Source: an uncultured Marinicella sp. (GTDB lineage Bacteria > Pseudomonadota > Gammaproteobacteria > Xanthomonadales > Marinicellaceae). From it: DNA of 64,000 nucleotides. The DNA lies in NCBI GenBank assembly GCA_947502595.1, contig CANNAM010000013.1:1-64000 (forward strand), given 5' to 3'. The notes beneath the pieces are model-generated. The model saw nothing but the letters and a program-made list of their open reading frames with translations. It made no database searches and was not told the origin of the DNA. This document shows positions 16,781 through 23,723 of the stretch, piece by piece; within the stretch, counting starts at the first letter, position 1, and every line of letters begins with the position of its first letter. The position numbers and the translations under genes were made by a program.

Positions 16781-17422
16781 CTACCCTTTGAGTAACAATG
16801 CCACAGCCAACCATTCACCATGATGGGACAAGCTGATATCATGTGGCAGCCTTTCATTGTGTTGACCGACCAAAATAGGCGGACCAGGTTTGCTGTACCC
16901 ACTCATTGCAATAGCTGGACGTTCTATTTGCGCTGTAATCTGATTGTTTCTGAATAACTTTTGCGCCAACATCCTGACTTGTTGGGATTGGTTGCCATGA
17001 GTTTCTTCAGGCTGTAGCATTGCACAACTGCTTTGTATGTCATTGGCTGCCAGCACAGAGTCAGTAGTCGCAAGGCAATGCACACAGCTGTTGGTCGGCC
17101 ATGAATAAAATAACTTGAAGTTTTGTGAATGAAAACTTAGTGATGCATTCAACGGTTTGGTGTAATCATGTGCACTTAATTGTTCCAATGCATACTTATC
17201 TAAAATGAATTGGCTGGGCGAAAAAATGGTTTTAAAATTGCGCTTTTGTTGGGCTTTAAAACTGGCCTCTTTGGCTGCCCATAAACTCCAAAGAAAGGCA
17301 TTTTTATCGCTGCTCTGAGATAAATGATCAGCTTCATTTTCGTTTAAAATACGCCCGATGTACCTCGGTTCTTGATACTTTTTATGATCTACACTGTAAT
17401 CAACAATGTCATTACCCAGCAT
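16781..17422 (-). CDS. 4'-phosphopantetheinyl transferase
   Basis: Predicted to attach the phosphopantetheine arm from coenzyme A to the serine of an acyl carrier protein, most likely the carrier at 18227-18466. From the ATG at 17422 (residues MLGNDIVDY) it has the two family motifs: an early acidic 'GNDIVD' and 'WSLWAAKEASFKA' (Trp48, Lys51, Glu52). The open frame extends upstream to 17473, but the 17422 start places the motif at the N-terminus, as in AcpS-like proteins, and begins four bases after the stop of the acyltransferase. At about 213 residues it is longer than AcpS (about 125) and nearer the Sfp class. It is the last gene of the cluster. Confidence 0.75.
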   Translation of the reverse strand: MLGNDIVDYSVDHKKYQEPRYIGRILNENEADHLSQSSDKNAFLWSLWAAKEASFKAQQKRNFKTIFSPSQFILDKYALEQLSAHDYTKPLNASLSFHSQNFKLFYSWPTNSCVHCLATTDSVLAANDIQSSCAMLQPEETHGNQSQQVRMLAQKLFRNNQITAQIERPAIAMSGYSKPGPPILVGQHNERLPHDISLSHHGEWLAVALLLKG

Positions 17423-17426
17423 GCTG

Positions 17427-18164
17427 TTATTGACTGTCCATATAGGCAGTTTCCATGCGTGATAAATGATCAATCATTTGTGTAGCTACATCCCTCATTG
17501 CCCGTCTCCCGCTTAATTCAGTGCTGATTGATACAAGTTTTAATTGGATGCTGAATTGCTCGGATTTTTTAGGCATTTTGCTGGCTTTTTGCTGCTTATC
17601 TCCACGCAAATAAACACACAGTAATTCGCTTTGAGGGCTGTCTGCATGTAATTTGCCCACTCCATAAACATAATTTTCAGTGTTAATTCGTCCGGTGTGG
17701 CTGCGCGTACCTTCTGGGAACACCATCACATACTGCCCTGTATTCAGTAAATAACTGGCATCCTCCATGGTTGCTTGTGCTTGCTGTAAATCATCTGGAA
17801 TTAACAAACATTTACCCAAATAACAAATACTGCGATACAACCAGCTTTCTTGTACGTTACTGGCTTTTGGTAAATTCCAACACATGGTGCGGTAGTTACT
17901 AAAGTACGACCAAGGTGTAGCAAAAGCCCAAATCAAGATAATTGAATCAATATAAGTTAAATGATTGGGACAAACCAACAGCCCGCCAGGGTGGTTCTGC
18001 TTAATTTGCTTGAATTGTTTTCTGACTGACTTAAGGTCTTTAATGCGGTATTTTCGTACCCAGCGTAACCAGCAAACCAGCGTTGGATACAAGACCGGAA
18101 AAAACAGCAAAGAAATGGTTTTTTGGCTGCTTAATTTCAGTCGTTTTCGATTAAAAATATTCAT
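17427..18164 (-). CDS. PlsC-like acyltransferase
   Basis: A member of the 1-acyl-glycerol-3-phosphate acyltransferase superfamily. The catalytic HX4D motif is 'NHLTYIDS', and the acceptor-binding 'FPEGTRSHTGR' is intact. A hydrophobic N-terminal stretch suggests peripheral or integral association with the inner membrane. The ATG at 18164 is preferred over an in-frame TTG at 18173. Sitting between the dedicated carrier protein and the phosphopantetheinyl transferase, it may move the acyl chain made by the cluster from the carrier protein onto a lipid or other acceptor (inference). The acceptor is unknown, and housekeeping PlsC activity cannot be excluded. Confidence 0.8.
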   Translation of the reverse strand: MNIFNRKRLKLSSQKTISLLFFPVLYPTLVCWLRWVRKYRIKDLKSVRKQFKQIKQNHPGGLLVCPNHLTYIDSIILIWAFATPWSYFSNYRTMCWNLPKASNVQESWLYRSICYLGKCLLIPDDLQQAQATMEDASYLLNTGQYVMVFPEGTRSHTGRINTENYVYGVGKLHADSPQSELLCVYLRGDKQQKASKMPKKSEQFSIQLKLVSISTELSGRRAMRDVATQMIDHLSRMETAYMDSQ

Positions 18165-18226
18165 TAAAAACAATTCTTTACACGCCTTCTGTCATGCAAA
18201 ATAACAGAAGGCGCAAGACACAAAAC

Positions 18227-18466
18227 TCAGGATTTTTCATTGATGATTTTAACCGCATCACCGATGGTGCGAATGGCATCAGCTTCTTCATCGCTGACTT
18301 CAATATCAAACTCATCTTCAAAATCAATCACAATGTCCACCAACCTTGCGGAGTTCACTGCCAAATCATCTAAAAAACTGGTCGAGTCTGTGGCCGCAGC
18401 CAAGGCTTCTTGATTTTTACAATAAGGTGACACGATGCTTTTAACTTTATCAAATACTTCACTCAT
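18227..18466 (-). CDS. Acyl carrier protein of the secondary fatty-acid cluster
   Basis: A 79-residue acidic four-helix carrier protein. Its phosphopantetheine attachment site is Ser39 in 'DDLAVNSARLVDIV', whereas typical carriers, including the AcpP encoded at 60389-60628, have 'DDLGADSLDTVEL'. The Asp before the serine is Asn and the Leu after it is Ala. This divergence in the recognition helix suggests a carrier for specialised partners. GAGGAAA lies four bases before the ATG. It lies between the beta-ketoacyl synthase and the acyltransferase. Confidence 0.88.
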   Translation of the reverse strand: MSEVFDKVKSIVSPYCKNQEALAAATDSTSFLDDLAVNSARLVDIVIDFEDEFDIEVSDEEADAIRTIGDAVKIINEKS

Positions 18467-21811: not shown

Positions 21812-21812
21812 A

Positions 21813-22745
21813 TCAGAATGAAGCTATTTGTTCGCCACCATCAACTCGAATCAACGCGCCATTGATCCATTGCGCTTCATCTCGAGAAAGTAAAAACACC
21901 ACGTCTGCAACGTCTTCAGGTGTGGTCAATCTTTTGAATGGGTTTTTTAATTTAGCCACTGACTTCATCCGACCACTGCCTGGAATGGCTTGTAAGGCTT
22001 TGGTGTCAGTAACACCGGCTTGAATGATGTTGGAACGGATGCCTTGTGAAGCAAACTCAACAGCAATTGATCTAGACACTGATTCCAAGGCCACTTTTGC
22101 TGCTGAAACAGCTGCATAGCCGCGCCATGCCACGGTGTTTCCTTCACTGGTCAACCCCAGCACCCTGGCATCTGCGGTAAACATTTGCGCTGTTGAAAGC
22201 TTTTGGGTCCAAGTCAATAAACTGGTACCCATGCTATAAATGGTGCGGGCCATGTCCTCATCATCAATCAAGGTTTCACTGTACTGTGGATCATCTAAAG
22301 TAAACAATTCGTCGTGATTCGAAACCAATAAATCATCCACAGCACTTTTAACTGTGGCCTCATCTAAACCTAATTTTGTGGCCAATTGCTTGATTGCTTG
22401 ATTGCCTTGGTTGCGGTAAGGCGCAATTGGTTTTAAATTTCCGAATGCAATAGAATGCAATAACAACCTGATCTTTCCATGCGCACCCAAGGCAGCTTTC
22501 AACTCGGTTAAAACCTGCTGCATCCCAGCTTCACTCAAAGCATCTAAATTGAAGTTTATAAACTGCACACCTTGGTTGCGTATTTCATCAAAACCCTGCT
22601 CAATGGCTTGCATGGCACCGCGTCTGTCTCGATGAACGATACATATATTCATGCCTTGCTGACTTAATTTTTTTGCACTGGCCAAGCCAAAGCCGCTTGA
22701 TCCGCCAAGAATAAGTGCCCAATGGTTTTTGTCGAATTTATTCAT
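21813..22745 (-). CDS. SDR-type enoyl-ACP reductase, FabI/FabL-like
   Basis: A 310-residue NAD(P)-binding Rossmann protein. The active-site pair is Tyr210 and Lys217, a Tyr-X6-Lys spacing diagnostic of enoyl-ACP reductases (ketoreductases have Tyr-X3-Lys). 'LLHSIAFG' matches the FabI motif 'HSIGF', and the cofactor loop 'GGSSGFG' is closer to FabL. It is about 45 residues longer than FabI; the extra stretch, about residues 115-165, is acidic and lies between the 'HSIAFG' strand and the catalytic helix. It would carry out the final reduction of each elongation cycle in the cluster. Confidence 0.83.
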   Translation of the reverse strand: MNKFDKNHWALILGGSSGFGLASAKKLSQQGMNICIVHRDRRGAMQAIEQGFDEIRNQGVQFINFNLDALSEAGMQQVLTELKAALGAHGKIRLLLHSIAFGNLKPIAPYRNQGNQAIKQLATKLGLDEATVKSAVDDLLVSNHDELFTLDDPQYSETLIDDEDMARTIYSMGTSLLTWTQKLSTAQMFTADARVLGLTSEGNTVAWRGYAAVSAAKVALESVSRSIAVEFASQGIRSNIIQAGVTDTKALQAIPGSGRMKSVAKLKNPFKRLTTPEDVADVVFLLSRDEAQWINGALIRVDGGEQIASF

Positions 22746-22802
22746 TAATGATTCTCGTGTTTGTAGTTAATGTGGCTGATAAGATTTGTCTGTATACATG
22801 GC

Positions 22803-23723
22803 TTATTTGGCAAATGCCCTGACGGCACTCTTGTAGCTGACAACAGCTTGGATGTCGACTCCAATGGATTTGAAAAATCCTTTCAACGGTCGATTCGGCC
22901 CAAGTTCAAGAATGGCCTTATCTTGTATCAATGCCATATTTTTCCGCCACTGAACACTGCCACTGATTTGTTTGGCTAAAGCAGAGATCAGTTGATCCTG
23001 ATCAGCTGCATAAAAAGTGCCTAAATAATTAGACGCCACTTGCGGTAAGTTTTGACTGTTGATAGCTGATTTAAATTGTTGAGCATAGTCAAAAAACGCT
23101 TCTTCAGCAGGTATCATCCACCTGGAATGGAATGCTGAACTGACGGTTAAAGGCACTGCCCTGAATGCTTCATCAGCATATTGCTGGCTTAATTGCGTAA
23201 CAGCTTTATCAACATCGGCTTGCATGCCACTGATTACCACTTGTTGGTTTGAGTTGTCATTTGCCATATCAACATTGAATTGATTGACCGTTTTGACCAA
23301 ATCATCTAAGGGTATATTGTCCATAATAACGGCTGTCATACTGCCACCTGTCGTGGCATGGTGCATCAACTCACCTCGCTTACACACCAAATCTAAAGCC
23401 ACTTCAAAAGGCAGCACATCGGCAGCTACTAAAGCAGTATATTCTCCCAATGAATGGCCTGCAAAACAGTGGGCTTGTAATTTAAAGTCTGCTTTGACAG
23501 CTTCATACATGGCAATTTCTGCGACCAAAATTGCAGGTTGGGTGTAATTGGTTTGATTCAACAGTGAATTCTCTGCATGACACAGTTGATAAATATCAAA
23601 CGGCAGACATGCGCTGGCTCGTTCAAACACCTCTGCTGCCGCATCACTGGCTTCAATAAAATCTTTAGCCATCCCTGTTTTTTGCGCCCCTTGCCCAGGA
23701 AACACCAATGCGTTAAAACTCAT
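22803..23723 (-). CDS. Malonyl-CoA:ACP transacylase, secondary cluster
   Basis: First gene of the secondary cluster, 306 residues. It has the 'FPGQGAQ' oxyanion segment, the nucleophile Ser91 in 'FAGHSLGEYTALV' and a downstream 'SSAFHSRWM' carrying the catalytic His. It should load malonyl groups on the cluster's carrier protein. A second transacylase is encoded in the housekeeping operon (61539-62483), so this is a true duplication. The next gene begins 57 bases downstream; the other junctions in the cluster are tighter. Confidence 0.9.
   Translation of the reverse strand: MSFNALVFPGQGAQKTGMAKDFIEASDAAAEVFERASACLPFDIYQLCHAENSLLNQTNYTQPAILVAEIAMYEAVKADFKLQAHCFAGHSLGEYTALVAADVLPFEVALDLVCKRGELMHHATTGGSMTAVIMDNIPLDDLVKTVNQFNVDMANDNSNQQVVISGMQADVDKAVTQLSQQYADEAFRAVPLTVSSAFHSRWMIPAEEAFFDYAQQFKSAINSQNLPQVASNYLGTFYAADQDQLISALAKQISGSVQWRKNMALIQDKAILELGPNRPLKGFFKSIGVDIQAVVSYKSAVRAFAK

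What the first reader, a model, noticed from the sequence alone, without database searches (positions are those of the whole stretch)
16781..23723. A second, nearly complete type II fatty-acid synthase cluster with its own carrier protein and activating enzyme
Nine coupled genes encode FabD, enoyl reductase, KAS III, FabA, FabZ, KAS I/II, acyl carrier protein, PlsC-like acyltransferase and phosphopantetheinyl transferase; all catalytic residues I checked are kept. The same window carries the standard plsX-fabHDG-acpP-fabF operon, so this is duplication, not the only FAS. A dedicated carrier, its activator and a terminal acyltransferase suggest a specialised acyl chain delivered to a lipid or other acceptor. 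There is no ketoreductase, thioesterase, ligase or aromatic-starter gene, which separates it from aryl-polyene and polyketide clusters I know.
Basis: partly seen in the sequence, partly recalled or inferred. Interest (0 to 1): 0.75.

Follow-up and report, generated by a model that had tools for sequence, protein, structure and literature searches.

The report
Second fatty-acid synthase with own carrier
A marine bacterium carries, beside its ordinary fatty-acid factory, a second nearly complete one with its own carrier protein and helper enzymes; the same gene set occurs in many distant bacterial groups, looks chemically insulated from the ordinary one, and in a few other bacteria supplies the only chain-building enzyme found.

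Summary
Nine closely packed genes (16781-23723, minus strand) encode FabD, an enoyl reductase, KAS III, a FabA-type dehydratase/isomerase, a FabZ-type dehydratase, an elongating KAS, ACP, a PlsC-type acyltransferase and a phosphopantetheinyl transferase, with catalytic motifs intact. The genome falls in the genus Marinicella. It is not a duplication of the housekeeping operon: the KAS is 33% identical to the window's FabF and belongs to a separate cross-phylum family that travels as an operon in a nearly fixed order (78 of 86 loci read). Here it is accessory: 8 of 18 congeners have it, all 18 have a desaturase-family gene. In 4 of 26 other genomes its KAS is the only elongating synthase found, so it is very probably a real fatty-acid synthase (completeness of those assemblies untold). 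The family shares an altered KAS gate (GFGG to GFGD, loop-2 Asp lost, Arg gained) and an altered carrier motif (D35N, D38R) mostly facing acidic instead of basic KAS residues, which predicts a self-contained synthase insulated from the ordinary one. A Coxiella operon with the same core was published in 2017 as unsaturated-fatty-acid genes. Product and insulation are unproven.

The parts
22803..23723 (-). FabD-type malonyl-CoA:ACP transacylase
   Evidence: PF00698; NCBIfam fabD 241.6 bits, below its 260.9 cut-off; GHSLGE and the catalytic His in 32 of 32 aligned
21813..22745 (-). SDR-type enoyl-ACP reductase, best NCBIfam match FabL
   Evidence: FabL 116.5 bits, cut-off 328; Tyr-x6-Lys as in FabI: Tyr 62 of 63 (one X), Lys 63 of 63; no PDB chain at E<=1e-25
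20804..21811 (-). KAS III (initiating ketosynthase)
   Evidence: Cys, His, Asn each 51 of 51
20221..20814 (-). FabA-type 3-hydroxyacyl-ACP dehydratase/isomerase
   Evidence: NF003509 209 bits, cut-off 124, but TIGR01749 fabA 169.9, below its 238 cut-off; His and Asp of E. coli FabA in 63 of 63; 45% identical to E. coli FabA
19760..20224 (-). FabZ-type dehydratase
   Evidence: fabZ 83 bits, below its 155 cut-off; His and Glu in 84 of 84
18496..19767 (-). elongating KAS of a distinct family, GFGD gate
   Evidence: Cys-His-Lys-His and GFGDVN in 86 of 86; Arg 275 in 86 of 86
18227..18466 (-). acyl carrier protein with Asn-Ser-Ala-Arg in place of Asp-Ser-Leu-Asp
   Evidence: Ser 86 of 86, Asn before it 85 of 86
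17427..18173 (-). PlsC/LPLAT-type acyltransferase
   Evidence: PF01553; NHxTxxD in 69 of 69
16781..17473 (-). 4'-phosphopantetheinyl transferase; probable ATG start at 17422
   Evidence: PF01648; the two Asp of GNDIVD 77 and 74 of 77, Lys and Glu of WxxKE 76 and 77 of 77
59044..63993 (-). for comparison: housekeeping plsX (partial at window edge)-fabH-fabD-fabG-acpP-fabF
   Evidence: my reading

Best explanation
The cluster encodes a self-contained second type II fatty-acid synthase, acquired horizontally by an ancestor of part of this genus. The dedicated PPTase would load the dedicated ACP; FabD would load malonyl groups; KAS III starts the chain; the unusual KAS elongates it; a FabG from the housekeeping operon would reduce the keto group (inferred, since none is in the cluster); the FabZ-type enzyme dehydrates and the reductase saturates; the FabA-type enzyme can instead isomerise trans-2 to cis-3 and so leave a cis double bond; the PlsC-type enzyme then moves the chain from the dedicated ACP to a lysolipid. 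Shown: gene content, order, intact catalytic motifs, conservation, patchy cross-phylum spread, and genomes in which no other elongating KAS was found. Inferred: that ACP and KAS are a co-adapted pair insulated from the ordinary FAS, that the chain is at least partly mono-unsaturated, and that the acceptor is a glycerolipid.
For: Catalytic motifs intact and conserved. Nearly fixed order over many phyla and purifying selection. In G403, G408, G411 and G413, 4 of 26 genomes tested, the operon KAS is the only strong PF00109 match, and no fabF lies beside their acpP. FabA rather than FabZ signature in 63 of 63. 17 of 26 genomes have no PF00487 desaturase match. ACP Asp35 to Asn (85 of 86) and Asp38 to Arg or Lys (75 of 86), with FabF Lys65 to Asp or Glu (66 of 86), while the basic residues of the second contact region are kept (127: 76, 128: 86, 206: 86 of 86) and so are the acids at ACP 47 and 48 (86 of 86). 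PMC7138838 reports that FabF Lys65, Arg68 and Lys69 contact AcpP Asp35 and Asp38, among others (passages); PMC3447402 that AcpS Arg14 contacts the same two (passages).
Against: No product, expression or biochemical data. Marinicella has a desaturase gene in 18 of 18 genomes, so an unsaturated product could be redundant. Two of the four sole-KAS genomes also have desaturase genes (G403 three matches, G411 two) and one (G413, L071) has no FabA-type gene in its operon. 22 of 86 loci show no FabA-type gene (some contigs are cut). Eight of 73 carriers with Arg38 face a KAS residue 65 that is not acidic, two of them Lys; 17 of 86 KAS keep a basic residue at 65, 68 or 69. All ten other genomes of the ACP search have at least one further ACP match outside the operon, including the four with no other KAS, so there this KAS may serve both carriers, which would weaken insulation. 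No PPTase was recognised in 8 of 86 loci. The completeness of the 26 assemblies reached through named loci is mostly untold, and fabF next to acpP is not universal (Bacillus, from recall), so its absence there does not prove loss.
Confidence: 0.66

Rival explanations
1. It is a plain FabA/FabB-type unsaturated-fatty-acid route, as proposed for the Coxiella operon; carrier and PPTase are passengers and the enzymes work on ordinary AcpP.
For: FabA signature in 63 of 63; PMC5423948 assigns CBU_0034-0038 (ACP, FabB, FabZ, FabA, FabH) to unsaturated fatty acids (passages); cluster-positive genomes have fewer PF00487 matches on average (21 over 8 genomes against 37 over 10, counted, weak matches included).
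Against: Own FabD, KAS III, enoyl reductase, PPTase and acyltransferase are not needed for that; the KAS is no closer to FabB (35%) than to FabF (34%); the carrier is found in 85 of 86 loci with a changed recognition motif; a desaturase-family gene is in 18 of 18 congeners.
Confidence: 0.3
2. A dissociated polyunsaturated-fatty-acid or other specialised-chain synthase: repeated FabA isomerisation gives several cis double bonds, and the PlsC-type enzyme places the chain in a phospholipid.
For: The parts list parallels PUFA synthases (malonyl transferase, KS, FabA-type DH, ER, carrier, PPTase; parallel from recall); in 11 flavobacterial loci the KAS-ACP core sits beside a type III PKS, mostly with a methyltransferase and a flavin enzyme (10 each), so this core can serve a special product.
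Against: One KS and no chain-length factor in the window cluster; three relatives, G404-G406, carry separate 2,384-2,410-residue frames with several FabA-type domains as well; genomes with no other KAS argue for ordinary fatty acids.
Confidence: 0.2
3. Aryl-polyene or dialkylresorcinol-like pigment cluster.
For: Shares KAS, ACP, dehydratase and acyltransferase families.
Against: No ammonia-lyase, AMP ligase, ApeI-type dehydratase or second elongating KS in the cluster; these are on contig C6 of the same genome.
Confidence: 0.02

Closest known systems
Coxiella burnetii CBU_0034-CBU_0038 operon (PMC5423948)
   Same: Same core in the same order (FabH, FabA, FabZ, KAS, ACP); held to be gained from a deltaproteobacterium or spirochaete; the paper cites transposon hits in two of the genes as reducing growth in cultured cells (passages).
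   Different: The five genes named there do not include FabD, enoyl reductase, acyltransferase or PPTase; the passages I read mention no altered carrier or KAS gate; I had no named Coxiella sequence to compare.
Canonical type II FAS (E. coli fabHDG-acpP-fabF, fabA, fabB, fabI, fabZ)
   Same: Every step except ketoreduction has a homologue with intact catalytic residues.
   Different: KAS 34-35% and ACP 39% identical; gate GFGD with the Asp265 position Gly; carrier NSAR for DSLD; PPTase and LPLAT in the operon.
Aryl-polyene clusters
   Same: FAS-like KAS, ACP, dehydratase and acyltransferase parts.
   Different: No aromatic starter genes; a cluster of that type is elsewhere in this genome.
FASII clusters of Kuenenia and Desulfotalea (PMC2649909)
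   Same: FAS-like clusters with extra KAS and ACP genes in anaerobes, proposed there for a new PUFA route (passages).
   Different: PMC2649909 found no FabA gene in Kuenenia and stresses radical-SAM and phytoene-desaturase-like genes, none of which is in this cluster; not compared by sequence here.

Membership tests
Type II fatty-acid synthase | Discrete enzymes for malonyl loading, initiation, elongation, dehydration and enoyl reduction with intact catalytic residues | tested here: met
Type II fatty-acid synthase | Ketoreductase in the same set | tested here: not met
   none in the window cluster; present in 26 of 86 relatives; a housekeeping fabG is in the window
Type II fatty-acid synthase | Can serve as the organism's fatty-acid elongation system | tested here: inconclusive
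   only strong elongating KAS found in 4 of 26 genomes; assemblies of untold completeness, no experiment
FabA/FabB unsaturated-fatty-acid pathway | FabA-type active site (His, Asp) rather than FabZ (His, Glu) | tested here: met
   63 of 63 aligned; one of two NCBIfam FabA cut-offs reached
FabA/FabB unsaturated-fatty-acid pathway | FabB-type KAS | tested here: not met
   35% to FabB, 34% to FabF, separate clade; below NCBIfam cut-offs for both
FabA/FabB unsaturated-fatty-acid pathway | Isomerase activity and cis product | not testable with these tools
   needs enzyme assay or lipid analysis
Aryl-polyene cluster | Ammonia-lyase, aryl ligase, ApeI-type dehydratase | tested here: not met
   found instead on contig C6
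Coxiella CBU_0034-0038 type operon | Order FabH-FabA-FabZ-KAS-ACP | tested here: met
   same order here as stated in PMC5423948
Coxiella CBU_0034-0038 type operon | Same clade by sequence | not tested
   no named Coxiella sequence was fetched

The most novel reading that the evidence does not exclude
A widespread, horizontally moving fatty-acid synthase that is naturally orthogonal to the ordinary one: its carrier and ketosynthase have reversed one charged patch of their interface and rewired the ketosynthase gate (acid moved from loop 2 to loop 1, Arg set in loop 2), so that two fatty-acid synthases can run side by side in one cell without exchanging intermediates, and it can even stand in for the ordinary ketosynthase.
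Probability: 0.42. Interest if true: 0.78.

Novelty: new variant of a known kind. Interest (0 to 1): 0.6.

Why it matters
It would show that bacteria exchange a nearly complete, insulated fatty-acid synthase between phyla and may use it in place of the housekeeping ketosynthase. It offers a natural orthogonal carrier-ketosynthase pair, which engineers try to build, and a concrete candidate for how some bacteria without desaturases make their membrane lipids.

Tried and rejected
Duplication of the housekeeping operon: rejected by identity and tree. Sole unsaturated-fatty-acid route of the genus: rejected. Aryl-polyene: rejected on gene content. An AlphaFold model of the KAS from 10 sequences (mean pLDDT 72) had loop 2 (273-280) and residues 115-168 under 50, and no coordinates came back, so the proposed Asp-Arg contact could not be measured. 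Promoter-like sites were no more than in shuffles (14 against 17.2, sd 5.0); terminator-like sites 16 against 8.4, sd 2.6; not used. The charge-swap correlation rests on few clades (all 11 Asn38/Leu65 pairs are flavobacterial loci L113 and L115-L124), so I give no P-value. dN/dS of the window against L040 could be computed for 4 of 9 genes only (0.04-0.11); the rest were saturated.

Literature: ten searches counted; searches did not run. In their listings only PMC5423948 was seen to concern this operon type. I read passages of PMC5423948 (also its abstract), PMC2649909, PMC7138838, PMC3447402, PMC12195097, PMC2897892 and PMC7549970; everything else was listing only. A search with GFGD showed no paper holding that word among the six listed of 691. 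Marinicella lipid data were not found.

Dropped rows and bias: L037, L039 and L042 were left out of counts as the same records as L045, L046 and L047; one of 86 loci had a KAS frame under 380 residues and is not in the KAS counts (window plus 85). The Arg, the carrier motif and the operon order were in neither seed. The loop-2 alignment has gaps, so 'Asp265 is Gly' is by column. The DSL control used a pattern that demands Asp-Ser; the GFGG control did not demand the last Gly but matched in only 4 of 6 loci with an ordinary FabF.
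Full report
What is there. Nine genes on the minus strand, 23723 down to 16781, encode in order FabD, an SDR-type enoyl reductase, KAS III, a FabA-type dehydratase, a FabZ-type dehydratase, an elongating KAS, an ACP, a PlsC-type acyltransferase and a phosphopantetheinyl transferase. Neighbours overlap or lie at most 57 bases apart. 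The housekeeping set is at about 59044-63993 (my reading). The genome (3.24 Mb, 64 contigs) falls in Marinicella: the nearest named KAS relatives are Marinicella gelatinilytica and an uncultured Marinicella at 77-79%, and the same-genus genome G002 has its copy on a contig of the same length, 354500 bases, as the M. gelatinilytica record.

Distribution. Among 33 genomes of the family the KAS has close copies (77-83%) in seven others, all in its own genus, so 8 of 18 congeners carry it; these seven have the operon in the same order, one contig being cut. Of 369 genomes drawn from the class, 3 including its own match at E <= 1e-75. Of 86 loci read (these 80 plus six from genomes known by handle), 78 keep the order FabD-ER-KASIII-FabA-(FabG)-FabZ type-KAS-ACP-PlsC-PPTase as an ordered subset, 8 deviate; presence: KAS 86, ACP 85, FabZ type 83, PPTase 78, PlsC 69, FabA 64, ER 62, KAS III 51, FabD 31, FabG 26 (some contigs are cut). 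In the KAS tree (86 family members, 3 outgroups; quick method, SH-aLRT only, 31 of 86 inner branches open) the family is split from FabF/FabB by a long branch (100), the eight Marinicella rows are one clade (99), and Spirochaetota, Myxococcota and Pseudomonadota are scattered, which fits horizontal spread; MAG contamination and hidden paralogy are not excluded.

Is it the housekeeping route? Not in this genus. All 18 congeners have a PF00487 match over the cut-off (the window genome's one shows the His motifs of a delta-9-type enzyme, my reading). The ten without the cluster have one PF07977 match each, at 116-124 bits like other FabZ genes of the genus rather than the 142-148 bits of the cluster's FabA (the window genome's FabZ lies beside lpxA and lpxD; the ten were not aligned one by one). 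Elsewhere it may be. In 4 of 26 genomes tested (G403 Leptospiraceae KatS3mg129, G408 Desulfobacteraceae, G411 and G413 Spirochaetia) the operon KAS is the only strong PF00109 match; the weaker ones look like thiolases (my reading). None has a fabF beside acpP: in G403, G411 and G413 rnc follows acpP at 137-306 bases, and in G408 neither fabF nor rnc was found on the stretch. The four have an ordinary ACP as well; G403 and G411 have desaturase matches, G408 and G413 none. In G403, G407 and G410 the operon's two dehydratases are the only PF07977 matches (13 genomes). 17 of 26 genomes have no PF00487 match. The completeness of these assemblies is mostly not told.

Molecular signature. Catalytic Cys-His-Lys-His of the KAS is kept in 86 of 86. 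Gate loop 1, GFGG in FabF and FabB, is GFGD in 86 of 86; Asn396 is Ala or Ser in 86 of 86; the column of loop-2 Asp265 is Gly in 86 of 86; and an Arg absent from FabF and FabB stands in loop 2 in 86 of 86. Four ordinary FabF genes from relatives' genomes that matched a pattern open at the last position have GFGG. PMC7138838 reports that FabF D265A and D265N crosslink only 2% and 1% with a C8 probe and G402A 24% (passages), so this family should couple its loops differently; an Asp-Arg contact is my proposal. The ACP has Asn-Ser-Ala-Arg where AcpP has Asp-Ser-Leu-Asp: Asn 85 of 86; Arg 74, Lys 1, Asn 11 of 86; six ordinary ACPs from relatives' genomes have Asp-Ser-Leu. FabF Lys65, Arg68 and Lys69 contact a set of AcpP residues that includes Asp35 and Asp38; here position 65 is acidic in 66 of 86 and 81 of 86 have an acid at 64-66, although 17 of 86 keep a basic residue at 65, 68 or 69. 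The second contact region keeps its basic residues on the KAS and its acids at carrier positions 47 and 48. Of 73 carriers with Arg38, 65 face an acidic residue 65; all 11 with Asn38 face Leu, one clade. This is what a co-adapted, insulated carrier-synthase pair should look like, and it would explain a dedicated PPTase, since AcpS contacts the same two carrier residues (PMC3447402).

Variations. In five deltaproteobacterial loci without a recognised SDR reductase, an acyl-CoA-dehydrogenase-like gene ends 9-140 bases before KAS III. In L085 a fused acetyl-CoA-carboxylase-like frame of about 2,000 residues follows the operon, and similar frames lie in other loci. In 11 flavobacterial loci FabA and PlsC are not found and a type III polyketide synthase is beside the core, with a methyltransferase and a flavin enzyme in 10 each. 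So the KAS-ACP core can be wired to different ends.

Mechanism and verdict. The most likely reading is a self-contained, horizontally spread second FAS that makes saturated and probably cis-unsaturated chains on its own carrier and passes them to a lysolipid by its own acyltransferase. The closest published case is the Coxiella operon CBU_0034-0038, said to come from a deltaproteobacterium or spirochaete and to make unsaturated fatty acids (PMC5423948, passages). The kind (type II FAS) is known; the full operon's cross-phylum spread, its standing as only KAS found in some genomes and the altered carrier and gate residues I did not see in the listings and passages of the ten searches counted, which cover open-access papers only.

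Noticed in passing
G000:C6 1-20000 (L043): An aryl-polyene-type cluster in the same genome: aromatic ammonia-lyase, AMP ligase, ApeI-type dehydratase, several ketosynthases, glycosyltransferase, lipid A-type acyltransferase.
   Followed up: partly
L081, L093, L099, L103, L105: An acyl-CoA-dehydrogenase-like gene stands directly before KAS III where the SDR enoyl reductase would be, an apparent non-homologous replacement.
   Followed up: partly
L113, L115-L124 (flavobacteria): The KAS-ACP core without FabA and PlsC beside a type III polyketide synthase, and mostly a methyltransferase and a flavin enzyme: looks like an alkylresorcinol- or quinone-type pathway fed by its own FAS.
   Followed up: partly
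L085:11327-17521 and similar frames in L080, L083, L089, L095, L114: Fused biotin carboxylase-carboxyltransferase frame (Pfam only for L085) next to the FAS operon, perhaps a private malonyl-CoA supply.
   Followed up: no
L125, L126, L127, L128: Ordinary fabG-acpP kept without fabF in genomes where the operon KAS is the only one found; what the ordinary ACP then does is unexplained.
   Followed up: partly
G404, G405, G406: Separate 2,384-2,410-residue frames with several FabA-type domains (PUFA-synthase-like) in genomes that also hold this operon.
   Followed up: no
window 16781-17473; L039, L040: The PPTase is the fastest-changing gene of the operon (43-53% identity where the KAS has 77-96%), while FabD and ER of L039 and L040 have much lower dS (0.06, 0.18) than the other genes (0.48-2.2), a hint of recent exchange of part of the operon.
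   Followed up: no
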